Of a DNA stretch of 64,000 nt, positions 8,771-53,920 are shown piece by piece. The translations under genes and the position numbers were made by a program. How positions within the stretch are numbered: position 1 is the first letter of the stretch; every line of letters begins with the position of its first letter. The notes beneath the pieces are model-generated. The model was not told where the DNA came from. It did not search any database and worked only from the letters and a program-made list of their open reading frames with translations. Origin of the DNA: Saccharothrix sp. ALI-22-I (lineage in GTDB: Bacteria; Actinomycetota; Actinomycetes; Mycobacteriales; Pseudonocardiaceae); contig NZ_MTQP01000067.1 of NCBI RefSeq assembly GCF_001984175.1, positions 434,001 through 498,000 on the forward strand. The letters are read 5' to 3'.

Positions 8771-9058
8771 CCCGAGAGTCGAACCCTCAGGCCCCGCGTG
8801 TCCAACGTTCACGTCGCGCGTGTCCAACGTTCAGAACAGGCGTGTCCAACGTTCAGAACAGGCGAGTTGAGCACTCGGAACGTTCGGGCCCCGCGCTCGC
8901 CTGTTCTGAACGTTGAACTCGGGGGTCCTGAACGTTGAACTCGGGGGTCCTGAACGTTGGACACGCGCGTTCTGAACGTAGGACACGCGCGTTCTGAACG
9001 TAGGACACGCGCGTTCTGAACGTTGGACACGCGCGACGTGAGGGTTCGACTCTCGGGG
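8771..9058. repeat. 22-bp mosaic repeat array 1, forms a long inverted repeat
   Basis: It fills the space between two convergent stop codons. Plus-oriented units with core GTGTCCAACGTTC start at 8798, 8820 and 8842, followed by GAGTTGAGCACTC at 8864: exact 22-bp steps. Reverse-oriented units follow. The ends are inverted copies: CCGAGAGTCGAACCCTCA at 8772-8789 pairs perfectly with 9039-9056, and the 26 bp at 8812-8837 pair with 9013-9038. The left arm contains exactly one extra 22-bp unit (8790-8811). Confidence 0.9.
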
Positions 9059-9064
9059 TTTGGG

Positions 9065-10360
9065 TTATGAGGTGGGGGTTAGGGACTGGATTTGGTTGTA
9101 GGTGGGGATGTTGGTGGGTGTGGGGGTGCCGTCTCGGACGGCTTCGGCGGTTCGGACGGCCTCGCCTAGTGCGGCGCGGAAGAGTAGTGAGCCGGTGCTG
9201 ACTCGTCGGACGCCCAGGTCTTGCAGGGTCTTGATGTTCAGCTGTGCCAGGACGTTCAGGGGGACGGGGACGGCGGCGACCACGTCGGCGATTCGCCGTT
9301 CGTCGTTCAGTCCGGGGACGAAGATGCCGTCGGCGCCTGCGTCTACGTATCGCAGGGCGCGGTCTACTGTGGAATCCCGGTCCACGGTCAGCCAGTGCGT
9401 GTCGACGCGGGCGTTGACGAACAGTCCGGGTGCGGCCTCCTTGAACGCCCGCACGATCGCGGCCTGATCGGCGGGGTCGGCCAAGCCTTCGCCGCGTCCG
9501 TCCTCGACGTTGACGCCGGCCACGCCCAGCTCCCAGAGCTCTGCCGCCAACGAACGCACGTCACCGCCGAAGCCGGCTTCGACGTCCACCGTGACCGGCA
9601 CGGGCAGGCGGACCAGCATCCGGGCCAACGCCAACGTCTCCGCACGCGCCGCCCCCGCCGCGTCCGGGATACCGTGCGCCGCCGCGACACCCAGGCTCGT
9701 CGTGCCGACCGCAGGGAACCCCGCCCGCACGAAAGCCGCCGCCGACGCGAAGTCCCAGGCGTTCGGCAGCACCAGGAACCCGTCGTGCAACCGGTGGAAC
9801 GCCCGCGCGCCCTCGACCAACGCCAACGCGTGCGCCCGCCCCGGGCACTCGTGCCGCCCGGCCCCGAACCAAGCGTCACGAAGATCCACCTCGACCACCG
9901 CACCATCAGGCGCGACCCGGCGGGTGATGGGGACCGGCGGCTCGACCCCGGCGATCAACGCCCGCGTCGCGTCACACGCCTGCACCAGCAACCCGATCCG
10001 GTTGGCCGTCTCCTCGTCCCACACCCCACCACACGCGGCGACCAGCCGTGCCACCGCCTCATCGGCCTCACGTGTCACCGCAACATGCGGCTGATAGCAG
10101 GTGGCCACCACCGCCACATCCGACGCGACCGACCGGGGCAGCCCCAACGCCTCCGCCAACACCGCCACCGGCATCCCCGCCCGCCGCAACGACTGAATAT
10201 CCACAGTGGACAGAGTCCGTCGCGCGAACGCCCGCCGCCGCTCGTGGTCCGCACCCTCGCTGAACCGCGCCCCACCGGCCCGCAGCCACGCCACCCCGGA
10301 CTCCGCTGCGGGCACTGGCGTTACGACGTAAGCCTTGCTGTGCAGAACTTCCGAAGTCAT
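9065..10360 (-). CDS. Mini-P450-like domain fused to isocitrate lyase/PEP mutase-family domain
   Basis: 431 residues from ATG 10360 (MTSEVLHSK). Residues ~1-185 look like a shortened cytochrome P450: GARFSEGADHERRR, an I-helix-like LLVQACDATRALI, RRVAPDG, and a heme-loop-like FGAGRHECPG with C172. Most of the usual ~400-residue P450 fold is missing. Residues ~186-420 are an isocitrate lyase/phosphoenolpyruvate mutase barrel: FLVLPNAWDFASAAAF, VDVEAGFGG, VNVEDG and NARVDTH. That family makes or breaks C-C or C-P bonds of 2-oxo acids with Mg2+. Divergent from an ArsR regulator, with repeated TAAGCCTT elements between. Substrate unknown; heme binding untested. Confidence 0.85.
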   Translation of the reverse strand: MTSEVLHSKAYVVTPVPAAESGVAWLRAGGARFSEGADHERRRAFARRTLSTVDIQSLRRAGMPVAVLAEALGLPRSVASDVAVVATCYQPHVAVTREADEAVARLVAACGGVWDEETANRIGLLVQACDATRALIAGVEPPVPITRRVAPDGAVVEVDLRDAWFGAGRHECPGRAHALALVEGARAFHRLHDGFLVLPNAWDFASAAAFVRAGFPAVGTTSLGVAAAHGIPDAAGAARAETLALARMLVRLPVPVTVDVEAGFGGDVRSLAAELWELGVAGVNVEDGRGEGLADPADQAAIVRAFKEAAPGLFVNARVDTHWLTVDRDSTVDRALRYVDAGADGIFVPGLNDERRIADVVAAVPVPLNVLAQLNIKTLQDLGVRRVSTGSLLFRAALGEAVRTAEAVRDGTPTPTNIPTYNQIQSLTPTS

Positions 10361-10381
10361 GCTGCGAACATAAGCCTTACT
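10329..10381. promoter_or_regulatory. Candidate operators with repeated TAAGCCTT
   Basis: Two TAAGCCTT elements (10329-10336 and 10371-10378) flank the start of the P450/PEP-mutase gene; the second continues as the palindrome-like TAAGCCTTA. They lie between the divergent fusion and ArsR genes, where an ArsR-family repressor would be expected to bind. Inferred from repetition and position only. Confidence 0.35.
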
Positions 10382-10416
10382 TACTTCGGCGCACACCGAA
10401 GCGTCGGGCGCGCACA

Positions 10417-11103
10417 ATGGCGGGCATGGCAGCCGACGAACTGGCGAACCTGGCCGCGTTGCTGGCCGACCGCAGCCGCGCCCGGTTCCTGCTCGCGCTC
10501 ATGGACGGCAAGGCGTGGACGTCCAGCGAACTGGCCAACGCCGCCGAAGTCGCACCCTCGACGGCCAGCGAGCACCTGACCCGGCTCGTTCAAGGCGGAC
10601 TGCTGGTCGAACGCCGCCAGGGCCGCCACCGCTACGTCCAACTCGCCGGCCCGAAGCAGGCCCGGCTGCTCGAAGACCTGCTCGGCTACCTGGGACCGAC
10701 CGAACCGCCGAAACCCACGCTCAGCGCGTCCGCCGCCAACCAGGCCCTCCGACGCGGCCGCACGTGCTACGACCACTTGGCCGGACGGCTGGGCGTGGCC
10801 ATCACCGACGCCATGACCGCACGCGGCCTGCTCACCGACGACCTCGCGGTCACAGACCAGGGCCTCGCATGGCTCAGGGACGAACTCGCGTTCACCCCAC
10901 CGAGCACTCGCCGCCCGCTCGCCAAAGCATGTCTGGACTGGACCGAGCGCCGCTCCCACCTCGCGGGCACGGCGGGCGCGCACGTGTGCGCCCAACTCCA
11001 CGCCCGCAACTGGGTCCGGAAGATCGGCACGAGCCGCGCCGTGCGCCTCACCCCGACCGGCGAGGCGGCACTGCACGACCTGCTCGGCGTCTCAACGCCC
11101 TAG
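10417..11103 (+). CDS. ArsR-family winged-helix transcriptional regulator
   Basis: 228 residues (in-frame ATGs at 10417 and 10426). The N-terminal ArsR helix-turn-helix is LAALLADRSRARFLLALMDG, then SSELANAAEVAPSTASEHL and QGRHRYVQL. The C-terminal ~120 residues are an extension seen in the larger, non-metal ArsR subfamily; no CxC or His metal site is visible. It is divergent from the P450/PEP-mutase fusion and probably controls it and itself through the TAAGCCTT elements. The ligand is unknown. Confidence 0.88.
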   Translation: MAGMAADELANLAALLADRSRARFLLALMDGKAWTSSELANAAEVAPSTASEHLTRLVQGGLLVERRQGRHRYVQLAGPKQARLLEDLLGYLGPTEPPKPTLSASAANQALRRGRTCYDHLAGRLGVAITDAMTARGLLTDDLAVTDQGLAWLRDELAFTPPSTRRPLAKACLDWTERRSHLAGTAGAHVCAQLHARNWVRKIGTSRAVRLTPTGEAALHDLLGVSTP

Positions 11104-11187
11104 ACCCTGGCTCAACGCCCTAGGCCCTGGCTCAACGTAGACCCTGGCTCAGCGCCCTAGCCCGTCCTGGCGGCGTGGACACGGATC
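11104..11187. repeat. Short CCCTGGCTCA repeats downstream of the ArsR gene
   Basis: The segment ACCCTGGCTCAACGCCCTAG occurs at about 11104, with variants at about 11123 and 11140, and a diverged fourth copy becomes the left arm of the hairpin at 11192-11220. It looks like duplication of terminator-arm sequence. Unrelated to the 22-bp family. Confidence 0.55.
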
Positions 11188-11191
11188 AGCA

Positions 11192-11220
11192 CCCTGGCTC
11201 TCAGCGCTCTGAAGCCAGGG
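11192..11220. terminator. Hairpin between convergent ArsR and PP2C genes
   Basis: CCCTGGCT (11192-11199) pairs with AGCCAGGG (11213-11220), and the inner bases partly pair as well. It ends two bases before the PP2C stop. A bidirectional intrinsic-type terminator is likely; there is no T-tract. Confidence 0.5.
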
Positions 11221-11221
11221 G

Positions 11222-11971
11222 TCAGCGGGTCAGCCACTTCGGCAGCCACGAGGAGTTGCCCGACGGCAGCACGTCGATCACGACGCAGGTGATGTTGTCC
11301 GGTCCGCCGCCCGCGTTCGCCGCCTGGATCAACGCCTGCACGGTCTCGTCACCGTCCGAGGTGGCCGCCAGCAGTCCGGCGATCTCGGCCGCGCCGACCA
11401 CGTCGGACAGACCGTCCGAGCAGATCAGGTACCGGTCGCCCGCCTCGACGTCCTGGAAGAACAGGTCCGGGTCGTGCGCGCTGCCCGCCTGGAGCGCGCG
11501 CATGAGCATGGACCGGCCGGGGTGCTCGGCGGCCTGTTCGGCGGCCATCCGACCGTCGTCCACCAACGCCTGGACCATGGTGTGGTCCCTGGTGATCTGG
11601 GTCAGCTCGCCCTCGCGGACGAGGTAGCAGCGCGAGTCGCCGATGTGCCCGACCGCGAACCGCTCCCCGTCCCACACCAGCGCGGTGAGCGTGGTGCCCA
11701 TGCCGCGCATGTCGAAGTTCTCCTCGGCCAGGTCCGTCAGCCGGATGGCGATCTCCCGCGCCGCGCCGGACAGTTCACCGAGGGGGTCGTCGGCCTCCAC
11801 GTCGAGGTCGGCCAGCACCGCCACCGCGATCGAACTCGCCACTTCGCCGTACGCGTGACCGCCCATGCCGTCGGCGACGGCGAACAGGCGTTCGCTGAAA
11901 TACACCGAGTCCTCGTTCGCTTCACGGCGCAGGCCGGGGTCGGTGCCGACGGCGTACCGGAGCGCATACAT
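11222..11971 (-). CDS. PP2C-type serine/threonine protein phosphatase
   Basis: 249 residues, the usual length of soluble actinobacterial PP2C enzymes. Metal- and phosphate-site motifs are visible: TDPGLRREANEDS, FAVADGMGGHAYGE, GMGTTLTAL, GHIGDSRCYLVR, TRDHT, LICSDGLSDVV and GPDNITCVVI. It dephosphorylates Ser/Thr phosphoproteins with Mn2+/Mg2+, usually opposing PknA/B-type kinases. No kinase gene lies next to it here, and there is no membrane segment. Confidence 0.95.
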   Translation of the reverse strand: MYALRYAVGTDPGLRREANEDSVYFSERLFAVADGMGGHAYGEVASSIAVAVLADLDVEADDPLGELSGAAREIAIRLTDLAEENFDMRGMGTTLTALVWDGERFAVGHIGDSRCYLVREGELTQITRDHTMVQALVDDGRMAAEQAAEHPGRSMLMRALQAGSAHDPDLFFQDVEAGDRYLICSDGLSDVVGAAEIAGLLAATSDGDETVQALIQAANAGGGPDNITCVVIDVLPSGNSSWLPKWLTR

Positions 11972-12026
11972 GCTGCACAGTGAATCACCCGCACGGGTGC
12001 CCGTGAGCAGGGCATCTCCAAATCAG

Positions 12027-13082
12027 TCACCTAGGGCGGCCGTAGAACTCGCTCAGGAGGAGCATGGCCGCACCCGCCGCGACCACATCGTCACCCAACG
12101 GGGTGATCGACACGTCCACCGGAAGCCACTCGTCCTTGGGCAACCGGGCCCGCACACCATCCAGGTAGGCGGCGGGTTCGGCGAGCACCGCGCGACCGGC
12201 CAGCACCACGTGGTCGATGTCGAGCAGCTGCACCAGATCGGCCACGGCCACGCCCACTATGGACGTCGCCTCCACCAGGTCACCGCGTGCGGCGGCGAGG
12301 TTGTGCAGCGCCTCGATGCACCCGCTCCGGCCGCACACGCACGGCGGGCCGTCGAGCTGGATGGTGGTGTGCCCGTACTCGCCCGCGTTGGTCCGCACGC
12401 CCCGGTGCACGCGGCCGTCGAGCAGCATCCCGATGCCGAGACCGGTGCCGACGAGCACGAGCACCGCGTCCCGCAGCTCCTCGCCGCGCCGCCACGCCTC
12501 GGCGACAACCGCCGTGTTGGTGTCCTTGTCGAGCACGACCGGCAGGCCCAGCCGCTTCTCGGCCAACGCGCGCAGCGGCACGTCGTGCCACGCGGTCAGG
12601 CCGGTCGGGTAGTGCACCACGCCGGTGCGGTGGTCGAGCGGTCCGACGAAACCGATGCCCACCCCGAGAAGCCGGTCGCTGCGGAGCCGGTCGCTGCGCA
12701 GGCCGTCGACCAAGCGGTTGAGCTCCTCCACGAACGTCGGCGGGTCGAAGTCGCGCGGGAGTGGTGCGACGGCGCGGTCCAGCACGGTGCCCGCGAGGTC
12801 GGTGAGCACGACGCGCAGTTCGTCCCGTTCGACCTGGGCGCCGAGCGCGAGCCTGCTGTCCGCGACCAGCTTGAGCAGGGTGCGCGGCTTGCCGACGCCG
12901 ACGTTGCGGGTGCCGGACTCGACCAGCAGACCGTCGACGATGAGCCTGCTCACCACCTTGGACACCGCTTGGGGGGTGAGGCCGCTGCGGTCGGCCAGTT
13001 CGACCCTGGTGACCGCGCCGGACCGGGCCAAGCCCAGCACTACCGCGTCGTTGTACCCCCGCAGAAAGCGCAAGTTGGCCAC
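12027..13082 (-). CDS. ROK-family protein with N-terminal winged helix (repressor/sugar-kinase type)
   Basis: 351 residues. The N-terminal helix-turn-helix is VTRVELADRSGLTPQAVSKV. The ROK fold follows, with an ATP/sugar site (VGIGFVGPLD, DKDTNTAVVAEAW, GTGLGIGMLLDG) and the zinc signature GHTTIQLDGPPCVCGRSGC. With the HTH it belongs to the NagC/XylR-type repressor class, responding to a sugar or sugar phosphate. It is divergent from the short Gfo/Idh gene. A target regulon cannot be read from the window; the chitinase and GH5 genes nearby are candidates only by proximity. Confidence 0.92.
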   Translation of the reverse strand: MANLRFLRGYNDAVVLGLARSGAVTRVELADRSGLTPQAVSKVVSRLIVDGLLVESGTRNVGVGKPRTLLKLVADSRLALGAQVERDELRVVLTDLAGTVLDRAVAPLPRDFDPPTFVEELNRLVDGLRSDRLRSDRLLGVGIGFVGPLDHRTGVVHYPTGLTAWHDVPLRALAEKRLGLPVVLDKDTNTAVVAEAWRRGEELRDAVLVLVGTGLGIGMLLDGRVHRGVRTNAGEYGHTTIQLDGPPCVCGRSGCIEALHNLAAARGDLVEATSIVGVAVADLVQLLDIDHVVLAGRAVLAEPAAYLDGVRARLPKDEWLPVDVSITPLGDDVVAAGAAMLLLSEFYGRPR

Positions 13083-13136
13083 GGGTCCATCATCGCACCT
13101 GGCTTTTTACTACACGGCGTTGCTTTAATCTCCCTC

Positions 13137-13972: not shown

Positions 13973-14051
13973 CCCGGGCGCACCCGGCTGTCCACTCAGC
14001 CGCGCCCCTCTCCCGACGCCGTTCTGCCCCCGGACGTGCCGTCGGACCGGC

Positions 14052-14090: not shown

Positions 14091-14194
14091 CGCCTTCTAC
14101 GCCCAGTGCTACCGAATTCGCATTACCGACTCGTCGTGATACTCAACCCGCCCTTGGGTATCACCAGCCAGCGCTCCGACCCTGACCGCACGCG

Positions 14195-17194: not shown

Positions 17195-17230
17195 GAAGGG
17201 CCCTGCGGACACCTGCCCGCAGGGCCCTTC
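17195..17230. terminator. Chitinase terminator hairpin
   Basis: GAAGGGCCCTGCGG (17195-17208) pairs perfectly with CCGCAGGGCCCTTC (17217-17230), 17 bp after the chitinase stop. It is followed directly by a 22-bp repeat array, so this locus has both a classical terminator and an array. Confidence 0.82.
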
Positions 17231-17240
17231 CCCGTCCACC

Positions 17241-17390
17241 CGAACGTTCAACTCACCTGTTCCGAACGTTGGACATGCCCGTTCCCAACGTTGGACACGC
17301 GCGTTCTGAACGTTGGACACGCGCGTGTGTCCTACGTTCAGGCGCGGTGTGTCCTACGTTCAGGTATGCCGAGTTCGACGTTCAGGACGG
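17241..17390. repeat. 22-bp mosaic repeat array 2
   Basis: Reverse-oriented units (GAACGTTGGACAC) come first, then plus-oriented ones (GTGTCCTACGTTC). The turn at about 17305-17335 is a near-perfect palindrome around GGACACGCGCGTGTGTCC. The array ends two bases before the stop codon of the convergent carboxypeptidase gene. Confidence 0.85.
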
Positions 17391-26346: not shown

Positions 26347-26456
26347 CGCGTGTCCAACATCCAGAACACGCGTGTCCAACGCTCAGAACACGCGTGTCCA
26401 ACATCCAGAACACGCGTGTCCAACGCTCAGAACACCCGAGTTCAACGCTCAGAACA
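26347..26456. repeat. 22-bp mosaic repeat array 3 with 44-bp higher-order period
   Basis: Five consecutive 22-bp units. The first four alternate between a CCAACATCCAGAAC core and a CCAACGCTCAGAAC core, so the real repeated block is 44 bp, present twice. The fifth is the GAGTTCAACGCTC subtype. It lies between two co-directional genes, 87 bp before the DUF4173 start. Confidence 0.88.
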
Positions 26457-27925: not shown

Positions 27926-28131
27926 CGTTCTGAGCGTTCAACTCGCCTGTTCCGAACGTTGGACACGCGCGTTCTGGGCGTTGGACACGCGCGTGAGTCG
28001 TACGTTCGGGTCGCGAGAGTCGAACGCTCAGGACGGAGAGGTGGGTGTGGAGGCTGGGCTCGCGTGTTCTGAGTGTTGAACTCACGGGGCCTGAGCGTTC
28101 GACTCTCGGGGCCTCGGAGTTCGGCTCACGG
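27926..28131. repeat. 22-bp mosaic repeat array 4
   Basis: Mixed subtypes between two co-directional genes: reverse units (GAACGTTGGACAC), then TGAGTCGTACGTTC and GAGAGTCGAACGCTC, then a reverse GTTGAACTC and GTTCGACTCTC pair. The left and right halves can pair through the GAGAGTCGAACGCTCAGG motif (about 28014-28031) and its reverse copy (about 28091-28109), a stem of about 17 bp. Confidence 0.8.
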
Positions 28132-38330: not shown

Positions 38331-38526
38331 TGTCCTGAACGTTCAACTCACCTGTTCCGAACGTAGGACACGCCCGCGTGTCCAACGTTCAGAACGCGCG
38401 TGTCCAACGTTCAGAACGCGCGTGTCCAACGTTCAGAACGCGCGTGTCCAACGTTCAGAACGCGCGTGTCCAACGTTGGGAACGCGCGTGTCCAACGTTC
38501 GGGATACCCGAGTTGAGCGTTCGGGG
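38331..38526. repeat. 22-bp mosaic repeat array 5, six tandem units
   Basis: It fills the gap between the convergent FAD-dehydrogenase and AfsR-like stops. After two reverse units, GTGTCCAACGTT recurs at 38378, 38400, 38422, 38444, 38466 and 38488, exactly 22 bp apart; the first four units are almost identical. A final GAGTTGAGCGTTC unit abuts the AfsR-like stop codon. Confidence 0.92.
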
Positions 38527-41256
38527 TCAGGGGTAGGTGGTGACGTCGAGTTTGCGGGCGAGGTCGTCGGCGTCGGCCAGGCGGAGGTCGTGGTAGAGCT
38601 GCAGGGCGGCCAGCCAGTGCGGTCTTGCGGCGGCTGGGCCTTCCGATTGCTCCAGGACGTCGCCGATCGCGCGGTGGCACAAGGCCTCTTGGTAACGGTC
38701 GCCGAGGCGGGTGGCCAGCGCCAAGCCGGCGCGGTACGACTCCAAGGCCTCGTCGGCACGGCCCAGTTGCTGCGACGCCGTGCCCACGGTGTGCAGGGTC
38801 GCGGTGTGGGCCTTGGACGGCGCGGACGGGAACAGGCTCAGGGCTTCGGTGGCGTGGCGCAGGGCCTCCTCCGGCTGGTGCTTGCGCAGCAGCACGTTGG
38901 CCAGGTTGTTCTGGATGCTCGCCTGCGACCGGTTGTCCCCGACCTCCCGCGCCACCTCCAGCGCCTCCAGGATCGTCGCCTGCGCCCGGTCCAGCTGGTC
39001 GTCGGCCATCAAGCAGTAACCCAGGTTCGCCAACGCCGCCAGCTCCAGGTGCCGATCACCGTCGGCCAACGACGCCGCCCGCGTGCACGCCTCGATCGCC
39101 TCGTCGATCCGCTCCAGATCCGCCAGCGTGGACCCCAACCGCAGCAGGAACGTCGCCTCCGCGTGCCGGTCACCCAGGTCATGCGCCGCGGCCAGCCCGA
39201 TCCGGCACAACGTCAACCGGTCCAGCCGGTTGCCACGCCGGAAGTGGAACGCGTCCAGGCACAACGCCAGCTGCCAAGTCCGCTCCCGCTGCCCACCGTT
39301 CAACGCGATGTCCAGCGCCAGCCCCAGGTTCGCCTCTTCCAACGTGAACCAGTCCAACGCCGCCGCGTGCGACGACAGCTCCGGGAACGACGCCGGCCGG
39401 TGCTCGGCCGGCCCGAACGGCCGGACGTGGTCGGACAGGTGCGCCCGCGCATGGTCCGCCACGTGCAGGTAGTAGTCCAGCAACCGGTGAGTGGCCATCT
39501 GGTTGTCCACTTCGGACTCGGTGGCCGCCAGGTGGTGGGTGAACAGCCGCACCAGGTCGTGCCGCGAGTACCGGTCCGGCGTCGACTCGTGCAGCAGGTT
39601 CGCGTAGGCCAACGTGCGCAGGTGGGTGCGCGCGCTGACCACGTTGATCTCCAGCAACGCCGCCGCCGTGTAGCTGTCCAGTTCCGTGCCGAGGTGCAGC
39701 CCGAGCCGCCTGAACAGCCGCGCCGCACCTTCGGGCAGCTCCCGGTAGCTCACCGCCAACGCCGCGTGCACCCCGCGTCCCGCCTCGGGCAGCGACAACG
39801 CCGACAGCCGCCCCTGCTCGTCACGCAGCTCGTCCACCAGCGACTGGATCGTCCACCGCGGCCGTGACGCCAACCGCGCGCCCGCGATCCGCAACGCCAA
39901 CGGCAGCCGGTCGCACAGCTCCGCCAGCTCGGCCACCGCGTCCGGCTCCTGCTCGATGCGCTGACGTCCGAGCAGCGCCGCCAACAGGTGCTCGGCGCTC
40001 TCCTCCGGCAACGTCGGCACGTGCAGCGAGGACGCGCCCTCCATGACGACCAGGTCGTCCAACCGGTGCCGGCTCGTCACCAGCACCAGGCACCGCGCCG
40101 ACCCCGGCAGCAGCGGCCGGACCTGCTCGGCCGACCGGGCGTTGTCCAGGAACACCAGCACCCGGCGTCCGGCCAGCAGCGACCGGTACTGCGCGGCCTG
40201 GCCCTCCAGGTCCACCGCGATCTGCGAATCGGTCAGCCCCAACGCCCGCAGGAACCCGATCAACGCCGTCCGCGGGTCCAGCGGCTCGGTCTCGTCGAAC
40301 CCGCGCAGGTTCACGAACAGCTGTCCGTCCGGGAAGTCACCGGCCACCCTGTGCGCCCAACGCAGCGCCAGCGCCGTCTTGCCCACCCCGGCCGGGCCGA
40401 CCAGCAGCCCGATCGCCGAGTCCTGCCCGCTCAGGCTCGCACCGAGGTCCGACAGCTCCATCTCCCGGCCGACGAACCCGCGGTGCTCGCGCGGCAACTG
40501 CGCGGGCGCGTGGTCCACCGGCGTCGAAGGCGCGGTGTCGCCGGCCAGCACGGTCTGGTAGGCGTCACGCAGCTCCGGCCCGGGGTCCACGCCCAGCTCG
40601 TCGGCCAGCCGTTCCCGCGTCCGGTGGAACAACGCCAACGCCTCGGCCTGCCGCCCGGTCCAGTGCAGGGCCAGCACCAGCCGTGACACCAACGCCTCGC
40701 GCAGCGGGTTGGCGTCCACCGCGTCACGCAGCCCGGACACCGCCTCGGCCGCCCGGTCCAGCCGCGACAGCCGGGTCGCCAACTCCTGCACGGCCACCAG
40801 CCGCAGCTCCTCCAGCCGCGCGGACACCGCCTCCCGCAGGTGGTCGCCCGGCACGTCGGCCAGCACCGGCCCCCGCCACAACGCCAGCGCGTCCTGGAGC
40901 AGCTTCGCGGCCTCTTCGTCGGTGGCGTCACGTGCGGTGGCCAACAGGTCCTCGAACCGGAACACGTCCACCCGCGCCCGTTCGCCGGTCAGCACGTAAC
41001 CGGGGGCACGGGTGACAAGCGCTACACCGTCGGTCAGGACCTTGCGGAGTTGGGCGATATGTCCTTGAAGGGCGGCTTTCGCCTGCGGCGGGGGTGATCC
41101 GTCCCACACCAGATCCAGGAGTCGGTCACCGGACACCACCCGGTTCAGTTCCAGCGCGAGGGCCGCCAGGACCGTCCGCCGCTTGGCCGCGCCCAGCCGG
41201 ACAGTGTCACCACCTGCGGAAACCAGCTCAACGGGGCCAAGCAGGTTCACCCGCAT
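38527..41256 (-). CDS. AfsR/SARP-type regulator (BTAD, NB-ARC, TPR)
   Basis: 909 residues. N-terminal OmpR-like DNA-binding domain (MRVNLLGPVELV, ALQGHIAQLRKVL), bacterial transcriptional activator domain (~95-245, ending LGVDPGPELRDAYQ), an NB-ARC ATPase (LLVGPAGVGKTALALRWA, RVLVFLDNARSAEQV, RCLVLVTSRHRL, LPLALRIAGARL) and C-terminal TPRs (~650-900). AfsR-type proteins activate secondary-metabolism genes in Streptomyces when phosphorylated. No biosynthetic cluster is visible next to it. Its start is divergent from an ESX-type gene cluster. Confidence 0.95.
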   Translation of the reverse strand: MRVNLLGPVELVSAGGDTVRLGAAKRRTVLAALALELNRVVSGDRLLDLVWDGSPPPQAKAALQGHIAQLRKVLTDGVALVTRAPGYVLTGERARVDVFRFEDLLATARDATDEEAAKLLQDALALWRGPVLADVPGDHLREAVSARLEELRLVAVQELATRLSRLDRAAEAVSGLRDAVDANPLREALVSRLVLALHWTGRQAEALALFHRTRERLADELGVDPGPELRDAYQTVLAGDTAPSTPVDHAPAQLPREHRGFVGREMELSDLGASLSGQDSAIGLLVGPAGVGKTALALRWAHRVAGDFPDGQLFVNLRGFDETEPLDPRTALIGFLRALGLTDSQIAVDLEGQAAQYRSLLAGRRVLVFLDNARSAEQVRPLLPGSARCLVLVTSRHRLDDLVVMEGASSLHVPTLPEESAEHLLAALLGRQRIEQEPDAVAELAELCDRLPLALRIAGARLASRPRWTIQSLVDELRDEQGRLSALSLPEAGRGVHAALAVSYRELPEGAARLFRRLGLHLGTELDSYTAAALLEINVVSARTHLRTLAYANLLHESTPDRYSRHDLVRLFTHHLAATESEVDNQMATHRLLDYYLHVADHARAHLSDHVRPFGPAEHRPASFPELSSHAAALDWFTLEEANLGLALDIALNGGQRERTWQLALCLDAFHFRRGNRLDRLTLCRIGLAAAHDLGDRHAEATFLLRLGSTLADLERIDEAIEACTRAASLADGDRHLELAALANLGYCLMADDQLDRAQATILEALEVAREVGDNRSQASIQNNLANVLLRKHQPEEALRHATEALSLFPSAPSKAHTATLHTVGTASQQLGRADEALESYRAGLALATRLGDRYQEALCHRAIGDVLEQSEGPAAARPHWLAALQLYHDLRLADADDLARKLDVTTYP

Positions 41257-44259: not shown

Positions 44260-44520
44260 ACCCGAGAGTCGAACCCCCAGACCCCGAGAGTCGAACGCTC
44301 AAGACCCCCGAATTCAACACTCAAGACCCCCGAATTCAACACTCAGGACCCGCGTACCCCGTCCTGAGTGTTGAACTCACCCGACCTGAGCGTTCGACTC
44401 TCGCGACCCGAACGTACGACTCACGCGCGTGTCCAACGTTCAGAACGCGCGTGTCCAACGTTCAGAACGCGCGTGTCCAACGTTCGGAACGGGTGAGTTG
44501 AACGCTCGGGACGTGTGAGT
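44260..44520. repeat. 22-bp mosaic repeat array 6, most diverse subtypes
   Basis: Starts 5 bp after the EspG-like stop. Units in order: GAGAGTCGAACCCCC, GAGAGTCGAACGCTC, two GAATTCAACACTC, then reverse GTTGAACTC and GTTCGACTCTC, a TACGACTC unit, three GTGTCCAACGTTC units 22 bp apart, and GAGTTGAACGCTC. The first half is self-complementary: the plus and reverse units meet at about 44352-44360. Confidence 0.88.
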
Positions 44521-48512: not shown

Positions 48513-48519
48513 AGGTTCG

Positions 48520-48630: not shown

Positions 48631-48657
48631 CCGACGGCCACGCCACCCTCACCAGGA

Positions 48658-49893
48658 TCAGCTCAACCACTCGGGGCGCAACGGCATCCCCGACGTGGTG
48701 CCGTCCAACTTCACGCCCAGCACCTGGTGCAGCTGGATGTTGTTGCGCTCGAACCCGAGCCGGGACGCGGCCAGGTACAGCCGCCACACCCTGGCCCGAC
48801 CCAGCCCCACCTCGGAGACCGCCTCGTCCCAGTGCTTGTCGAGGTTGGCGCACCACGCCGCCAACGTCATGGCGTAGTGCTCGCGCAGGTTCTCCTCGTG
48901 CCGCACCTCGAACCCGGTGTCGTGCATCAGCGACACGATGTGCCCCGGCCCGACCAGCTCGCCGTCCGGGAACACGTACCGGTCGATGAACCCGCCGGTC
49001 CGCGCCGGGTGCCGGTTGTCCGGCCGGGTGATGCAGTGGTTGAGCATCCGCCCACCGGGCCGCACCTTCCGGTACAGGGCGCGGAAGTACGCGGGCAGCT
49101 TCGCCTTGCCGATGTGCTCGGTCAGGCCGATCGAGCTGACCGCGTCGAACCCGTCCTCCCGCACGTCGCGGTAGTCCAGGTAGCGCACCTCGGCCAGCTC
49201 GGACAGCCCGGCCTCGACGATGGCCTTCTGCGCCCACTCCGCCTGGTTGCGCGACAGCGTCACGCCCAGCGCCTTCACGCCGTACTCGCGCGCGGCGTGC
49301 ATGACCATCCCGCCCCAGCCGCAGCCCACGTCCAGCAGCCGCATCCCCGGCTTGAGGCCGAGCTTGCGCGCCACCAGGTCGTGCTTGGCGAACTGCGCCT
49401 GCTCCAGAGTGGACTCCGCGGTGGGGTACACCGCGCACGTGTAGGCCATCGACGGCCCGAGGATCCACTCGTAGAACGTGTTCGACACGTCGTAGTGGTG
49501 CGCGATCGCCTCGCGGTCACGCGCCTTCGAGTGCCGCAGACCGCGCAACCGGCGCTCCTGCGGCGGCACCTCCACCCGCGTAGCCAGCCGGGTACGCCCG
49601 AGAGTCGCCAACAACTCCAACCGCTCGCCCCAGGGCACCTCCCTCAGCGACATCTCGGACAGGTGCGTCAACGCCCCGTACACGTCGCCGATGATCTCCA
49701 GGTGCCCGGTCACGTACGCGCGGGCCAACCCCAGCTCACCCGGCGCCGATGCCAGGTACGACAACGCCTCCGGTGTGCGCACCTCGATGCCTACATCCGC
49801 GTCGGCCGGCCCAGCCTTGCTGCCGTCGTACGCACTGAACCGCACGGACGCGTCTCCTCCGACCGCCCGCTGGAACACCTCCGCCAACCGCAT
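48658..49893 (-). CDS. tmsB: SAM-dependent fatty acyl methyltransferase (10-methylene fatty acid synthase), CFA-synthase family
   Basis: 411 residues from ATG 49893 (GGGAG 8 nt upstream; GTG 49911 overlaps the previous stop and is also possible). CFA-synthase fold: EAIAHHYDVSNTFYEWILG, SAM site LLDVGCGWGGMVMHAA, TLSRNQAEWA, SSIGLTEHIG and ITRPDNRHPARTGGFIDRYV. Paired with an FAD oxidoreductase directly upstream, it matches TmsB/BfaB, which methylates C10 of oleoyl chains in phospholipids to a 10-methylene intermediate on the way to tuberculostearic acid. Acts at the inner membrane face. Confidence 0.85.
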   Translation of the reverse strand: MRLAEVFQRAVGGDASVRFSAYDGSKAGPADADVGIEVRTPEALSYLASAPGELGLARAYVTGHLEIIGDVYGALTHLSEMSLREVPWGERLELLATLGRTRLATRVEVPPQERRLRGLRHSKARDREAIAHHYDVSNTFYEWILGPSMAYTCAVYPTAESTLEQAQFAKHDLVARKLGLKPGMRLLDVGCGWGGMVMHAAREYGVKALGVTLSRNQAEWAQKAIVEAGLSELAEVRYLDYRDVREDGFDAVSSIGLTEHIGKAKLPAYFRALYRKVRPGGRMLNHCITRPDNRHPARTGGFIDRYVFPDGELVGPGHIVSLMHDTGFEVRHEENLREHYAMTLAAWCANLDKHWDEAVSEVGLGRARVWRLYLAASRLGFERNNIQLHQVLGVKLDGTTSGMPLRPEWLS

Positions 49894-49907
49894 GACCCCG
49901 GCTCCCT

Positions 49908-51269
49908 TCACCTACGGAGAACACACTTGGCGTACAAATCGGGCAGCCGGCCCGCCGGGTCGTACCGCTTCTTCAGGTCCTGGTACGTCGGGCCGTTGTA
50001 GTTGTCCCAGAACTCCTCCTCGCCGTAGTACGAGTCGGAGTACAGCGACTTGTGCCCACCCAGCTCGGTGACCTTGTCCTCGATCAGCCGGTTCCGGCTG
50101 CCCAGCTCCTCGTCGGGCCGCAGCGACACCGTCGACCAGAAGCCGACGTTGACGTACAGCACCTCCGCGTCCATCGGGTAGAGCGGCCAGCCACCCGTGC
50201 GGTCCTTCAACCGCACGGGGCACAGCCACACCGGGCTGATGCCGATCTCCCGGTGGAAGAAGTCCAGGAACTCGGCGAGCCGGTCCACCGGGATCTCCAC
50301 GTCCTGGATCACCGGCTCCTGCACCGCCTTGTTCAACCGGTCCGACAGCTTGTGCCGCCGGTCCCACGCCACGACCTTGCGGTAGACGTCCGACCGCAGG
50401 TACCGCTTGGGGATCAGCCGGCGCACCACCGGGTGCTGCACGCCGAACGCGCGCGAGCACCAGAACCAGTCGGTGTCCCACCGCCACAGGTAGTCCCGCA
50501 CGGTCAGGTAGTCGGTGCGCCGCTCCTGGATGGACCGGTAGTAGATGTGGTTGCCGGTGTAGTCCGACGTCCACGGCGCGGTGTCGGCCCAGTTCGCCAG
50601 CGTCAGGTACTGCTCTCCGCCGGAGAACACCGTGCCGTCCACGAAGTCGACCGGCTCCCCCTGGTAGGCGCCCTCGGCACAGACCGCGGAGATCACCTCG
50701 GCGCACTGCGCCGCGTCACCGAACGGCACGTGCCGCAGCCGCACGAACGGCTTCACCGGTTCGAGTTCGATCTCCAGCCGCAACGCGTAGCCGAGCGTGC
50801 CGTAGGAGTTCGGGAATCCGCGAAACAGATCGTCCTCCGGGCCGACGACAACGACCTCGCCGTCACCGGTCATCACCTCCAGTTCGCGCACGGACTCGTG
50901 CGGGAGGCCGTTGCGGAACGAGCTGGACTCGATGCCGAGGCCGGCCACCGCGCCGCCCAGGGTGATCGTCTTGAGCTGCGGCACGACCAGGGGCATCAGG
51001 CCGTGCGGCAGGGTGGCGTCCACCAGGTGCTCGTAGGTCGTCATGCCCTGTACCTGCGCGGTTCGTGCGGCGGGGTCGACCGACAGCACCTGGTCGAACC
51101 GGGCGACGTCCAGCCCACCGGACTGGTCGGCGCGGAACCTGAACAGGTTCGACGTCGACTTGGCCAGGCGCACGGGTGCGCCCGCCGGAATCGCCGCGTA
51201 CTGACCGCGCAGCGCGGCCACCGCCTGACTGTGCTCCGATACGCGGCTCCGCCGAGGGTGATCGCTCAC
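49908..51269 (-). CDS. tmsA: FAD-binding reductase of 10-methyl fatty acid synthesis
   Basis: 453 residues from GTG 51269 (TAACGT about 7 bp upstream suggests a leaderless start; the frame is open to 51305). N-terminal FAD_binding_4 domain: KSTSNLFRFR, VDPAARTAQVQGMTTYEHLV and LGGAVAGLGIESSSFRNG. The C-terminal half matches the tms/bfa oxidoreductase (KSLYSDSYYGEEEFWDNYNG, YDPAGRLPDLYAKCV). TmsA/BfaA reduces the 10-methylene intermediate to 10-methyl stearate. The GTGA region couples it to the methyltransferase gene. Confidence 0.85.
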   Translation of the reverse strand: MSDHPRRSRVSEHSQAVAALRGQYAAIPAGAPVRLAKSTSNLFRFRADQSGGLDVARFDQVLSVDPAARTAQVQGMTTYEHLVDATLPHGLMPLVVPQLKTITLGGAVAGLGIESSSFRNGLPHESVRELEVMTGDGEVVVVGPEDDLFRGFPNSYGTLGYALRLEIELEPVKPFVRLRHVPFGDAAQCAEVISAVCAEGAYQGEPVDFVDGTVFSGGEQYLTLANWADTAPWTSDYTGNHIYYRSIQERRTDYLTVRDYLWRWDTDWFWCSRAFGVQHPVVRRLIPKRYLRSDVYRKVVAWDRRHKLSDRLNKAVQEPVIQDVEIPVDRLAEFLDFFHREIGISPVWLCPVRLKDRTGGWPLYPMDAEVLYVNVGFWSTVSLRPDEELGSRNRLIEDKVTELGGHKSLYSDSYYGEEEFWDNYNGPTYQDLKKRYDPAGRLPDLYAKCVLRR

Positions 51270-51357
51270 CGGGACGACGTTAGGCCGCCGAAGCTTGATC
51301 AGCACGCCTAAATTTCACCGGTCTCGAAGTTACCGACGGGTAGTACCCTCCAGGACT

Positions 51358-52950
51358 ATGACCCACACCACTCACGAGGTGACCAACCAGGTCCCGCCGA
51401 TGGAAGGCCACGACGTTTCCGCCGACCCGGTGCTGCTGGACGGGTTGCACCGCGGCGGGGCGGAGTGGGCCGAACCGGAGCTGCGCTCGCTCGGCGTGCT
51501 CGCGGGCACCGCGCACGTCCAGGCCCTCGGCCGGCAGGCCAACGCGCACCCACCCGTGCTGCACACCCACGACCGGTACGGGCACCGGATCGACGAGGTC
51601 GAGTTCCACCCCGCCTGGCACGAGCTGATGCGGACCGCGGTGTCGAACGGCCTGCACGCGGCGCCGTGGCGGGACGACCGGCCGGGCGCGCACGTCGCCC
51701 GCGCGGCCAAGTTCTTCGTCTGGATCCAGGCCGAGGCCGGGCACGGGTGCCCGATCTCGATGACCTACGCGGCCGTGCCCGCGTTGCGCCATACGCCCGC
51801 GTTGGCCGAGCGGTTCGAGCCGCTGCTGGCGTCCCGCGAGTACGACTTCGGGTTGCGCGCGCCGTCGTCGAAGCGCGGGCTTCTCGCGGGCATGTCGATG
51901 ACCGAGAAGCAGGGCGGCTCGGACGTTCGGGCGAACACCACGCGCGCCGTGCCACGGGGTGACCACTACCTGTTGACCGGGCACAAGTGGTTCACCTCGG
52001 CGCCGATGTGCGACCTGTTCCTGACCCTGGCGCAGGCGCCGGGCGGCCTGTCGTGCTTCGTGGTGCCGCGCGTGCTGCCGGACGGAACGCGCAACGCGAT
52101 GTTCCTGCAACGGCTCAAGGACAAGCTGGGCAACAAGTCCAACGCGTCGTCCGAGGTGGAGTACGACGGCGCGGTCGGCTGGCTGGTCGGCGAGGAGGGC
52201 CGGGGCGTGCGGACCATCATCGAGATGGTCAACCGGACCCGGCTGGACTGCGTGCTGATGTCGGCGGCCGGGATGCGGTTCGGGCTGACGCAGGCCACGC
52301 ACCACGCGGCGCACCGCAAGGCGTTCGGGGAGTACCTGGTCGACCAGCCCGCGATGCGCAACGTGCTGGCCGACCTGGCGGTGGAGTCGGAGGCGGCGAC
52401 CACGGTGGCGCTGTGGCTGGCCGGGAACCGCAGCCGGCTGGGGCTGGCGGTGACGAAGTACTGGGTGTGCAAGCGGGCTCCGGTGCACGCGGCCGAGGCG
52501 TTGGAGTGCCTGGGCGGGAACGGGTACATCGAGGACTCGGGGATGCCGCGGATGTTCCGCGAGTCGCCGTTGTCGTCCATCTGGGAGGGGTCGGGCAACG
52601 TCGCCGCGTTGGACGCGTTGCGTGCGCTCGGGCGTTCGCCGGAGGCCGTGGAGGAGTTCTTCTCCGAGTTGGACGCGGCACGCGGCGCCGATCGGCGGCT
52701 GGACGCGGCGGTCGACGGGATCAAGGATGAGCTGACCGATCTCGATGACCTCGAACTGCGGGCGCGCAGACTGGTGGAGCGGATGGCGTTGGTGTTCCAG
52801 GGGTCGTTGCTCGTGCGGCACGGGCACCCGGCGGTGGCGGACGCGTTCTGCGCGTCCCGGCTGTCCGGTGACTGGGGCGTGGCGTTCGGCACGCTGCCGC
52901 GCGGGGTGGACTTCGGTGCGATCGTGGAACGGGGGCTGCCGAAGCTGTGA
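51358..52950 (+). CDS. AidB-like acyl-CoA dehydrogenase family protein
   Basis: 530 residues. The AidB-type signature GMSMTEKQGGSDVRANTT, FAD/active-site region CLGGNGYIEDSGMPRMFRE and SSIWEGSGN place it in the isovaleryl-CoA dehydrogenase/AidB branch, which often lacks ordinary acyl-CoA dehydrogenation and can bind DNA. Divergent from tmsA by 88 bp. Its stop overlaps the enoyl-CoA hydratase start (GTGA), suggesting a role in acyl-CoA metabolism. Confidence 0.9.
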   Translation: MTHTTHEVTNQVPPMEGHDVSADPVLLDGLHRGGAEWAEPELRSLGVLAGTAHVQALGRQANAHPPVLHTHDRYGHRIDEVEFHPAWHELMRTAVSNGLHAAPWRDDRPGAHVARAAKFFVWIQAEAGHGCPISMTYAAVPALRHTPALAERFEPLLASREYDFGLRAPSSKRGLLAGMSMTEKQGGSDVRANTTRAVPRGDHYLLTGHKWFTSAPMCDLFLTLAQAPGGLSCFVVPRVLPDGTRNAMFLQRLKDKLGNKSNASSEVEYDGAVGWLVGEEGRGVRTIIEMVNRTRLDCVLMSAAGMRFGLTQATHHAAHRKAFGEYLVDQPAMRNVLADLAVESEAATTVALWLAGNRSRLGLAVTKYWVCKRAPVHAAEALECLGGNGYIEDSGMPRMFRESPLSSIWEGSGNVAALDALRALGRSPEAVEEFFSELDAARGADRRLDAAVDGIKDELTDLDDLELRARRLVERMALVFQGSLLVRHGHPAVADAFCASRLSGDWGVAFGTLPRGVDFGAIVERGLPKL

Positions 52951-53702
52951 GTTCGGTACGGGTGGAGCGGTCCGGGCCGGTGTTCACCGTGCTGCTGAAC
53001 CGGCCGGCCGTGCGCAACGCGGTGGACGGGCCGACCGCGCACACGTTGACCGAGGTGTTCCGGGAGTTCGACGAGGACCCGACGGCGGCGGTGGCCGTGC
53101 TGCACGGGGAAGGCGGCACCTTCTGCTCGGGTGCGGACCTGAAGGCTCTCGGTACGGCCCGCAGCAACGACCCCACGTCCCCGTCCGGCCCGATGGGCCC
53201 GACCCGGCTACGCCTGTCCAAGCCGGTGATCGCGGCGGTGTCCGGGCACGCGGTGGCGGGTGGGCTGGAGTTGGCTCTGTGGTGCGACCTTCGGGTGGCC
53301 GACGAGGACGCCGTGTTCGGGGTGTTCTGCCGACGGTGGGGCGTGCCGCTGATCGACGGCGGCACCGTGCGGTTGCCCCGGCTGATCGGCGCGTCCCGCG
53401 CCATGGACCTGATCCTGACCGGCCGCCCCGTCCAAGCCGACGAGGCCCTCCACATCGGCCTGGTGAACCGCCTCGTCCCGCCCGGCACCTCCCGCACCGC
53501 CGCCGAGGCCCTAGCCCTCGAACTAGCCGCCTTCCCCCAGATCTGCCTACGCGAGGACCGCCTCTCCCTCCTGGAACAAGAAGACCTCCCCGAGCAGGAC
53601 GCCCTGACCAACGAACTAACCCACGGCCTGACCTCTCTCAACGAGGTCGAAAAGGGCCTCCACCGCTTCCGCTCCGGCGAAGGCCGCCACGGCCACTTCT
53701 GA
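52947..53702 (+). CDS. Enoyl-CoA hydratase/isomerase family protein
   Basis: 251 residues from GTG 52947, overlapping the AidB-like stop. Crotonase motifs: VLLNRPAVRNAVDG, EGGTFCSGADLKAL (oxyanion hole), PVIAAVSGHAVAGGLELALW and the catalytic region CRRWGVPLIDGGTVRLPRLIG. It hydrates or isomerises enoyl-CoA thioesters in the cytoplasm. Translational coupling suggests it works with the AidB-like protein. The substrate is unknown. Confidence 0.93.
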   Translation: MSSVRVERSGPVFTVLLNRPAVRNAVDGPTAHTLTEVFREFDEDPTAAVAVLHGEGGTFCSGADLKALGTARSNDPTSPSGPMGPTRLRLSKPVIAAVSGHAVAGGLELALWCDLRVADEDAVFGVFCRRWGVPLIDGGTVRLPRLIGASRAMDLILTGRPVQADEALHIGLVNRLVPPGTSRTAAEALALELAAFPQICLREDRLSLLEQEDLPEQDALTNELTHGLTSLNEVEKGLHRFRSGEGRHGHF

Positions 53703-53706
53703 CCCC

Positions 53707-53920
53707 ACACGCGCGTGTCCTACGTTCCGACCGCGCGTGTCCAACGTCCAGAACAGGCGTGTCCAACGTCCAGAACACCCGAGTTGAACGTTCAGAACGG
53801 GCGTGCGAAGTCCTGAGCGTTCAACTCGCCCGTTCCGAACGTTGGACACGCGCGTTCCGAACGTTGGACACGCGCGTTCTGAACGTTGGACACGCGCGTT
53901 CCGAGCGTTGGACACGCGGG
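53707..53920. repeat. 22-bp mosaic repeat array 7
   Basis: It occupies the whole gap between the convergent enoyl-CoA hydratase and acyl-CoA dehydrogenase stops. Plus units (GTGTCCTACGTTC, two GTGTCCAACGTCC, GAGTTGAACGTTC) are followed by reverse units (GTTCAACTC, then four GTTGGACAC) in 22-bp steps. Plus and reverse halves are complementary, so a transcript from either side could fold into a stem of several units. Confidence 0.9.

What the first reader, a model, noticed from the sequence alone, without database searches (positions are those of the whole stretch)
8771..53920. Family of 22-bp mosaic repeats in seven arrays restricted to gene 3' ends
Arrays at 8771-9058, 17241-17390, 26347-26456, 27926-28131, 38331-38526, 44260-44520 and 53707-53920 are built from 22-bp units with the shared core G(T/A)GTnnAACGnTC in several subtypes (GTGTCCAACGTTC, GAGTTGAACGTTC, GAGAGTCGAACGCTC, TGAGTCGTACGTTC). 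None lies in a divergent promoter region; all follow a stop codon. Four fill the gap between convergent stops. Most other convergent pairs in the window have a conventional hairpin or overlap instead (the chitinase pair has both). 22 bp is close to two helical turns, so a protein could bind one face. I know of no described element with these properties.
Basis: partly seen in the sequence, partly recalled or inferred. Interest (0 to 1): 0.88.

Follow-up and report, generated by a model that had tools for sequence, protein, structure and literature searches.

The report
Modular hairpin repeats at gene ends
Some soil actinobacteria finish many of their genes with arrays of a 22-letter DNA repeat that follow a strict order and usually fold into long hairpins, which probably mark where messages end, and we found no earlier description of them.

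Summary
A profile from 58 window units finds 234 hits at >=10 bits in 856 kb of this genome (window included), against 8 in the reversed sequence. They form 30 arrays of >=3 units: 16 convergent, 13 tandem, 1 at a called gene's end, 0 divergent. Nine congeners: 30 convergent, 15 tandem, 1 in a called gene, 0 divergent. Of 109 gene 3' ends within 120 bp of an array, 86 lie <=15 bp from its edge.

Beyond the finding: same-strand runs are [GWGTC unit]n ending in a GAGTT 'cap' (50 of 55 here). Units abut exactly (594 of 602), heads meet at 0 bp (38 of 46), facing modules lie 8-9 bp apart (32 of 59) with variable spacer sequence. Facing modules share their subtype; head-to-head ones do not. Positions often persist between species while unit sequence changes.

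Best reading: REP/BIME- and BOX-like hairpin elements at transcript 3' ends, probably bidirectional termination or 3'-end protection; mechanism inferred. Not a RAYT/REP family: eight array-rich congeners lack the Y1 transposase domain. New variant of a known kind.

The parts
8773..9055 (.). Array 1, convergent. Runs: + a T T T cap / - a T T T T cap cap (modules facing cap-to-cap; a = GAGTC unit, T = GTGTCC unit)
   Evidence: lies between stops at 8766(+) and 9065(-)
8883..8901 (.). Array 1 apex spacer between facing caps, 19 bp (atypical length)
17236..17389 (.). Array 2, convergent, head-to-head: - T T . cap / + T T cap; ends 3 bp before the stop of the minus-strand carboxypeptidase gene
17195..17230 (.). 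Ordinary 14-bp-stem hairpin after the GH18 chitinase gene; a like hairpin is seen in all 7 genomes printed for this gap (G000, G060, G059, G074, G077, G065, G058), whether or not an array follows
26347..26456 (+). Array 3, tandem pair, one sense module T T T T cap
27926..28108 (.). Array 4, tandem pair: - T T cap / + a a / - a cap, with a 29-bp spacer
38331..38528 (.). Array 5, convergent, head-to-head: - T cap / + six T, cap. Nine of 25 genomes of the genus (this one included) bear an array at this 3' end, in species-specific sequence
44263..44513 (.). Array 6, tandem pair: + a a cap cap / - a a cap / + T T T cap
44351..44359 (.). Array 6 apex: 9-bp spacer between facing caps (44329-44350 and 44360-44381)
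53712..53918 (.). Array 7, convergent: + T T T cap / - T T T T cap; an array at this gap in all 5 of the ten compared congeners that keep the gene pair adjacent in the stretch held
53800..53808 (.). Array 7 apex: 9-bp spacer between facing caps (53778-53799 and 53809-53830)

Best explanation
The arrays are a clade-specific family of modular 3'-end elements. SHOWN: a module is a run of 22-bp units in one orientation ending, in Saccharothrix, mostly with a distinct cap unit. Modules meet head-to-head at 0 bp or face each other cap-to-cap, most often around an 8-9 bp spacer of variable sequence. 21 of 30 arrays sampled in this genome hold both orientations, and all 21 fold on paper well below shuffled sequence on at least one strand. 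Arrays mostly begin at or a few bp after stop codons and are often kept at the same 3' ends in related species while unit sequence changes. INFERRED: the working form is the transcribed hairpin. It ends transcription of the gene, or of both genes when they converge, or protects the mRNA 3' end, and so limits antisense read-through. Unit number changes by slippage. The agent that spreads or homogenises the units is unknown.
For: Context: 0 of 30 and 0 of 46 arrays divergent. Gaps >=60 bp bearing an array: 16 of 70 convergent, 13 of 245 tandem, 0 of 120 divergent. Among 109 gene 3' ends within 120 bp of 70 arrays the median distance to the array edge is 6 bp, and in 21 the array overlaps the stop. 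In tandem pairs 41 of 50 arrays are nearer the upstream stop than the next start. The 21 mixed arrays fold at -33 to -202 kcal/mol, each at z -3.6 or lower on at least one strand (30 shuffles). Facing units agree in the four subtype columns: 0.90 against 0.73 when right arms are dealt among arrays of the same species (n=42, 0 of 3000; own genome 0.875 vs 0.578, n=14, p=0.0007); head-to-head 0.60 vs 0.57, not significant. Tandem arrays with one orientation are sense 13 to 3, p=0.02 (own genome 5 to 0, others 8 to 3, p=0.23). Mismatches in tandem arrays on the sense strand are G.T 74 to A.C 46, p=0.013, with balanced composition (own genome alone 42 to 29, p=0.15); convergent arrays 129 to 135. 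In six array-poor congeners, orthologues of array-bearing genes have an ordinary hairpin at 16 of 35 3' ends, against 15 of 73 for genes never bearing one, p=0.012. At loci 2 (G059, G058) and 6 (G064) relatives carry an ordinary hairpin where others carry the array. One Amycolatopsis array directly follows rnpB.
Against: No transcript data exist here. 9 of 30 own-genome arrays have one orientation and, array 3 apart, fold weakly on at least one strand. Matching between arms is not in register and is absent in the tail columns, so inverted duplication with slow head columns explains it as well as pairing selection. The first pooled test of within-array arm identity was negative (0.798 vs 0.788, p=0.2). 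The cap is not itself a covarying hairpin. The apparent lack of ordinary hairpins at array ends (3 of 84 vs 56 of 231) vanishes once masked space is controlled for. Hairpin frequency in convergent gaps does not differ between array-rich (41 of 178) and array-poor genomes (26 of 92, 19 of them from G058 and G067), p=0.37; the orthologue contrast is not significant for convergent ends alone (10 of 21 vs 9 of 30, p=0.25). Behind rnpB (0 of 25) and tmRNA (1 of 25, about 85 bp off) the genus shows no array units with the own-species profile. No run of four T is seen directly behind the window arrays (by eye).
Confidence: 0.52

Rival explanations
1. DNA-level binding platform: a protein (gyrase, a nucleoid protein or a dedicated factor) binds the 22-bp-phased units on one face of the DNA and acts where positive supercoils gather, downstream of genes and between convergent genes, as BIMEs do with gyrase.
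For: Exact 22-bp phasing (594 of 602 spacings 0), 0-bp head-to-head spacing (38 of 46) and 8-9 bp between facing modules (32 of 59) with variable spacer sequence; conserved cap motif GAGTT across Saccharothrix species. Gyrase binding by BIME-2 is reported in PMC2817692 (passages).
Against: The middle of the unit changes between species (GTGTCC, GAGTCG, GTGTCATG, GAGTCGTAA). Sense bias in tandem pairs and the G.T excess, both modest, are not expected of strand-blind DNA binding. No binding protein was sought or found.
Confidence: 0.2
2. A selfish or neutral short repeat that spreads and survives only where it does least harm, i.e. behind genes; hairpins are by-products.
For: Patchy distribution: many copies in one clade of the genus and in single species of other genera, no genome above 7 exact hits in a phylum sample. 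Turnover: an array in a 298-bp gap where a relative has a 1-bp gap. PMC3049150 (passages) offers this argument for BOX, RUP and SPRITE repeats.
Against: Retention at the same 3' ends in congeners with the pair adjacent: array 5 in 6 of 7, array 7 in 5 of 5, array 6 in 3 of 4; weaker for array 2 (3 of 6), array 3 (1 of 9), array 4 (0 of 2) and array 1 (0 of 1). Median 6 bp from the stop is closer than mere tolerance needs. No flanking direct repeats (2 of 76 arrays with >=7 bp, mean not above null). Y1 transposase domain absent in 20 of 25 genomes, though present in this one. No match in viral contigs or, for array 5, in plasmids. Tandem gaps also offer room near the next start, but 41 of 50 arrays sit nearer the stop.
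Confidence: 0.2
3. Stop-proximal translational damping: the structure so near the stop codon stalls terminating ribosomes and lowers output of the upstream gene, as reported for E. [quoted passage not shown]
For: 86 of 109 neighbouring 3' ends lie <=15 bp from the array edge. The E. coli effect and its 15-nt limit are described in PMC12306157 (passages).
Against: 23 of 109 are further away, and one array follows a non-coding RNA. The effect does not explain the preference for convergent gaps.
Confidence: 0.08

Closest known systems
REP / BIME elements (E. coli, Pseudomonas, Stenotrophomonas; GTAG and CGTC superfamilies)
   Same: Short species-specific extragenic repeats, in inverted clusters, mainly between convergent and co-directional genes, some just behind the stop; hairpin-forming (PMC3733652, PMC2817692, PMC12306157, passages)
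   Different: The 22-bp unit is not itself a covarying hairpin, has no GTAG/CGTC tag, forms head-to-tail runs at exact 22-bp spacing with a terminal cap variant; Y1 transposase missing in most array-rich genomes
BOX elements of Streptococcus (boxA-boxB(n)-boxC)
   Same: Modular: variable number of internal units bounded by fixed end units; predicted to fold as RNA; over-represented between convergent genes (PMC3049150, passages)
   Different: Much shorter 22-bp modules, two inverted modules per array, almost never in front of divergent genes. Sequences were not compared
SPRITE terminator-like repeats and inverted DNA-uptake-sequence pairs as predicted terminators (Neisseria)
   Same: A dispersed repeat, or an inverted pair of it, that may end transcription behind genes (PMC3049150, passages)
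   Different: Single hairpins with a uridine-rich tract (SPRITE) or 10-bp uptake signals; here multi-unit hairpins, no U-run; competence in this genus unknown to me
Hairpin clusters as intrinsic terminators without U-trails; bidirectional terminators
   Same: Hairpin clusters mostly within 80 bases of the stop, U-run not required (PMC8355165, abstract and section 13); bidirectional transcript ends reported in Streptomyces (PMC8269248, passages)
   Different: Described as local hairpins, not as a homologous repeat family with a grammar (as far as the parts seen go)

Membership tests
REP/RAYT system (REPtron-mobilised REPs) | Cognate Y1/HUH tyrosine transposase (PF01797) in genomes rich in the repeat | tested here: not met
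   5 of 25 genomes of the genus have PF01797, this one (2 matches), G060 and G061 among them; array-rich G059, G064, G065, G069, G071, G074, G075 and G077 have none. Only this Pfam family was tried
REP/RAYT system (REPtron-mobilised REPs) | Each unit an imperfect palindrome of 20-40 bp | tested here: not met
   The one stem tested pairs at 0.75 vs 0.76 in column shuffles for caps and 0.583 vs 0.582 for internal units
REP/RAYT system (REPtron-mobilised REPs) | GTAG or CGTC tag at one end | tested here: not met
   Unit begins CGCGTGTCC / CCCGAGTT
REP-like repeats in the wide sense (BIME-like behaviour) | Extragenic, many copies, inverted clusters, 3'-end preference | tested here: met
BOX elements | Fixed end modules with variable number of internal modules | tested here: met
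   Formal resemblance only: cap last in 177 of 221 modules over all sources, 50 of 55 runs in this genome
BOX elements | Homology to boxA/B/C | not tested
   No box sequences were compared
Intrinsic transcription terminators | Hairpin close behind the stop codon | tested here: met
   for the 21 mixed arrays; 9 of 30 arrays have one orientation and mostly fold weakly
Intrinsic transcription terminators | RNA 3' ends at the element in vivo | not testable with these tools
   No transcript data for these species here
Known structured RNA (Rfam 15) | Match above gathering score | tested here: not met
   0 matches in the window
IS/MITE remnant | Target-site duplication at the element's edges | tested here: not met
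   Longest flanking direct repeat not above permuted flanks; 2 of 76 with >=7 bp
CRISPR-like array | Unique spacers between repeats | tested here: not met
   Same-orientation units abut with 0 bp between in 594 of 602 cases

The most novel reading that the evidence does not exclude
A previously unknown class of genetic punctuation: hairpin 3'-end elements assembled by a dedicated machinery from polar modules (head, n internal units, cap), the machinery measuring the 22-bp unit and the 8-9 bp gap between facing caps. In this clade the modules take the place of ordinary terminators at part of the genes, their sequence drifting species by species as a code recognised by a co-evolving factor. The spacer, nearly fixed in length and free in sequence, would be the footprint of that factor (recombinase-like or loop-measuring).
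Probability: 0.15. Interest if true: 0.88.

Novelty: new variant of a known kind. Interest (0 to 1): 0.68.

Why it matters
How GC-rich actinobacteria end transcription without U-runs is, to my knowledge, poorly understood. Here a single homologous, countable element occurs in perhaps 130 to 360 arrays behind genes of one genome (extrapolated two ways), has an orientation, a copy number and natural presence/absence between close species at the same genes. That makes both the function of 3'-end repeats and the way such families spread and stay homogeneous directly testable. The strict grammar is, to my knowledge, unlike REP families and would constrain any mechanism of formation.

Tried and rejected
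Rejected: RAYT/REP membership (but this genome itself has two PF01797 matches). CRISPR-like reading. Insertion element with target duplication. Spread by phage or plasmid: 0 stretches in the viral contigs for the exact two-unit pattern, no plasmid match for array 5 (the phage record collection was not searched). Rfam family. The cap as a small covarying hairpin.

Tried, negative or withdrawn: lower hairpin frequency at array-bearing ends looked strong (p=6e-7 in mixed orthogroups), but a masking control removed it, so it is not used as evidence. Pooled within-array arm identity was not above cross-array. A whole-unit version of the facing-arm test was borderline in this genome (p=0.058) and p=0.005 pooled. 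In-register pairing against out-of-register: no difference in either version. rnpB and tmRNA 3' ends in the genus do not carry arrays by the own-species profile, apart from one tmRNA with units from about 85 bp downstream, behind an ordinary hairpin. A second repeat family in array-poor species: the 24-bp repeat behind one G066 gene has 5 exact hits in that genome and none in 24 others. A transcript-level test could not be made.

Caveats: genes were called with my own codon-model script, not a published caller. The species-specific profile for G069 drifted to a palindrome; G069 was left out and, for the stop distances, 70, and rescanned with the own-species profile. It is still in the counts (and the flank-repeat test) with the drifted profile. 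Named loci were picked by a two-unit pattern and belong partly to the species of G059 and G060, so those sets overlap in species; one search did not remove duplicates. In one search identical arrays were dropped and species with one pair do not enter the permutation (42 of 46 facing pairs, 38 of 42 head-to-head pairs used at rank 0). Facing junctions are all '+ then -' pairs, including some whose apex units are not of the GAGTT type.
Full report
WHAT IS THERE. The seven arrays are real and built from 22-bp units at the stated places. A profile built from 58 window units was run over 856 kb of the same contig, window included: 234 hits at >=10 bits, against 8 in the reversed sequence. Genome-wide there are 288 exact GWGTNNAACGTTC matches and none of the reversed pattern. 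Named records with two adjacent units (54 stretches) belong to Saccharothrix (including S. luteola, S. carnea, S. deserti, S. yanglingensis), an Actinophytocola MAG and Amycolatopsis pithecellobii. Contig lengths identify G060 with S. deserti and G059 with S. carnea; that G062 (9,360,653 bp, array-poor) is S. espanaensis is recalled, not looked up.

CONTEXT. With genes called by my own codon-model script, the 30 arrays of >=3 units in 856 kb lie in 16 convergent and 13 tandem gaps; 1 lies at the end of a called gene (all 30 fall in 17 convergent and 13 tandem gaps with a 15-bp tolerance); 0 are divergent, although divergent gaps make up 29 of 116 kb of intergenic DNA. Without the window: 12 convergent, 10 tandem, 1 in a called gene. 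Arrays occur in 16 of 70 convergent gaps of >=60 bp, 13 of 245 tandem and 0 of 120 divergent (convergent vs divergent p=3e-8; tandem vs divergent p=0.006). Nine congeners: 46 arrays, 30 convergent, 15 tandem, 1 in a called gene, 0 divergent (chance of none by gap count 3e-6). Six array-poor congeners: no array in strips of 80 kb each. Named loci: 56 arrays, 24 convergent, 21 tandem, 9 unplaced, 2 divergent. Of the two divergent ones, L101 directly follows an RNase P RNA gene, and L092 is a real exception. Two genomes of another genus, with units spaced 21 bp: 5 arrays, 3 tandem, 2 convergent.

CLOSENESS TO THE STOP. 109 gene 3' ends lie within 120 bp of one of 70 arrays (this genome's 856 kb and eight congener strips; G069 left out); the median distance is 6 bp and 86 are <=15 bp. 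In 21 the array overlaps the stop, 10 of them at the same offset of 8 bp; in one such case, G075 at the array 6 locus, the TGA of the repeat's TGAACG is the stop codon. Only 15 gene 5' ends are that near. In tandem pairs 41 of 50 arrays are nearer the upstream stop than the next start (p=6e-6).

GRAMMAR. In this genome each same-strand run reads [GWGTC unit]n then a GAGTT unit ('cap'): the cap is last in 50 of 55 runs of >=2 units, in the middle 5 times and first in none. Over all sources the cap is last in 177 of 221 modules, in the middle 18 times and first 6 times. The rule is a Saccharothrix one: Actinophytocola modules lack caps (1 of 19 ends in one) and Amycolatopsis units are mostly cap-like. 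Same-strand units follow at exactly 0 bp in 594 of 602 cases, head-to-head modules at 0 bp in 38 of 46, and facing modules (+ then -) lie 8 or 9 bp apart in 32 of 59, with spacer sequence differing from locus to locus. The apex of array 7 is alike in G059, G071, G074 and G077 and different in this species, so it looks inherited.

FACING MODULES MATCH. Pairing units outward from the apex, the four columns that define subtypes (3, 5, 9, 10) agree in 0.90 of cases at rank 1, against 0.73 when right arms are dealt among arrays of the same species (n=42, 0 of 3000 shuffles); in this genome alone 0.875 against 0.578 (n=14, p=0.0007). Head-to-head modules do not match (0.60 vs 0.57), and in this genome match less than shuffled ones (0.36 vs 0.55, n=11). 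Nine subtype combinations occur on both arms alike, so the matches involve changes on both sides (also, whose shuffles cross species). Against a simple pairing argument: the tail columns do not match in facing arms (0.56 vs 0.56), and in-register units match no better than out-of-register ones (0.883 vs 0.867, n=31). So the facing pair behaves as one evolutionary unit, but selection for base pairing is not proved.

FOLDING AND STRAND. All 21 arrays with both orientations fold at z -3.6 or lower on at least one strand (down to -34); of the 9 with one orientation most fold weakly, array 3 (z -4.7 and -6.9) being the clearest exception. Where a tandem array has one orientation, it is the sense one in 13 of 16 (5 of 5 here, 8 of 11 elsewhere). 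In tandem arrays G.T mismatches outnumber A.C on the sense strand 74 to 46 (p=0.013; 42 to 29, p=0.15, in this genome alone) while composition is balanced; in convergent arrays 129 to 135. Both are modest, but point to the transcript. The first pooled arm test was negative.

EVOLUTION. At the 3' end of the array 5 neighbour, 9 of 25 genomes of the genus (this one included) have an array in their own unit sequence, for example GTGTCATGCGTTC in G075 and GAGTCGTAA in G064. Where both flanking genes are still adjacent in the ten strips compared, arrays recur in 6 of 7 (array 5), 5 of 5 (array 7), 3 of 4 (array 6), 3 of 6 (array 2), 1 of 9 (array 3), 0 of 2 (array 4) and 0 of 1 (array 1). G060 has a 1-bp gap where this genome has array 1; at locus 2 G059 and G058, and at locus 6 G064, have an ordinary hairpin where others have the array. 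The core is common in the 13 congeners whose orthologue of window 38527-41256 is >=90% identical (6 to 101 exact hits) and near absent in the other 11 (0 to 3). In a sample of 396 genomes of the phylum no other genome has more than 7 exact hits; other subtypes would be missed by this pattern. Viral contigs and plasmids gave no match.

ARE THEY TERMINATORS? In six array-poor congeners, orthologues of genes that carry arrays in at least 30% of the array-rich genomes have an ordinary hairpin at 16 of 35 3' ends, against 15 of 73 for genes never carrying one (p=0.012). For convergent ends alone it is 10 of 21 vs 9 of 30, not significant, and overall hairpin frequency does not differ between the two groups of species. 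A stronger-looking result, few ordinary hairpins beside arrays, was an effect of masked space. Stable RNA genes of the genus mostly do without arrays: 0 of 25 rnpB and 1 of 25 tmRNA have array units within about 400 bp by the own-species profile. Termination or 3'-end protection is therefore the best reading, at about even odds.

COMPARISON. REP/BIME elements share the place and the inverted clusters (passages of PMC3733652, PMC2817692 and PMC12306157). Membership fails on the transposase (PF01797 in 5 of 25 genomes, this one included, but in none of eight array-rich congeners), on the palindromic unit and on the tag. BOX elements share the plan of fixed ends and variable middle and the convergent preference (passages of PMC3049150). 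Hairpin clusters without U-runs are proposed as terminators in PMC8355165 (abstract and section 13). Ten paper searches found no description of this family; only open-licence papers are held, and papers not named here were seen as listings only. Passages only of PMC8269248 and PMC1590033 were seen; the latter already reports that stem-loops in bacteria prefer convergent spaces.

VERDICT. A real, clade-restricted repeat family with unusual modular order at gene 3' ends; ordinary in kind (extragenic 3'-end repeat), new in sequence, grammar and spacing as far as the searches go.

Noticed in passing
L101:1632-2103: In Amycolatopsis pithecellobii an array starts about 10 bp behind the end of the RNase P RNA gene, so the element is not tied to protein genes.
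   Followed up: yes
L092:5886-5981: One array in a Saccharothrix yanglingensis locus lies in a 259-bp divergent gap, the only real exception seen.
   Followed up: partly
contig C65 of G000 as a whole: The 856-kb stretch holds 65 of the 288 exact core matches of the genome (8 percent of the length, 23 percent of the hits); arrays are unevenly spread.
   Followed up: no
arrays with first-unit offset -8, e.g. G075 at the array 6 locus (L170-L173 strip): In at least one gene the repeat supplies the stop codon (the TGA of TGAACG); offset -8 occurs for 10 of 109 neighbouring 3' ends.
   Followed up: partly
head-to-head junctions in the window's contig: Units meeting head-to-head with 0 bp between match less than shuffled ones in their subtype columns (0.36 vs 0.55, n=11), as if perfect spacer-less palindromes were avoided.
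   Followed up: partly
L146 (G066), behind the orthologue of window 38527-41256: An array-poor relative has a 24-bp tandem repeat behind the same gene; G057, G066 and G068 share a large imperfect palindrome there. The 24-bp repeat has only 5 exact hits in G066.
   Followed up: yes
L241 (G075 tmRNA): Behind tmRNA an ordinary hairpin with a short T run comes first and array units follow from about 85 bp downstream.
   Followed up: no
G006 and G021 (L197-L203): A related repeat in another genus of the family has a 21-bp instead of a 22-bp period and the same 3'-end placement (5 arrays seen).
   Followed up: partly
G000:C52:16101-16466 and G000:C51:107701-108051: The window's genome has two Y1 transposase (PF01797) matches although most array-rich congeners have none; whether they are IS200-type genes was not examined.
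   Followed up: no
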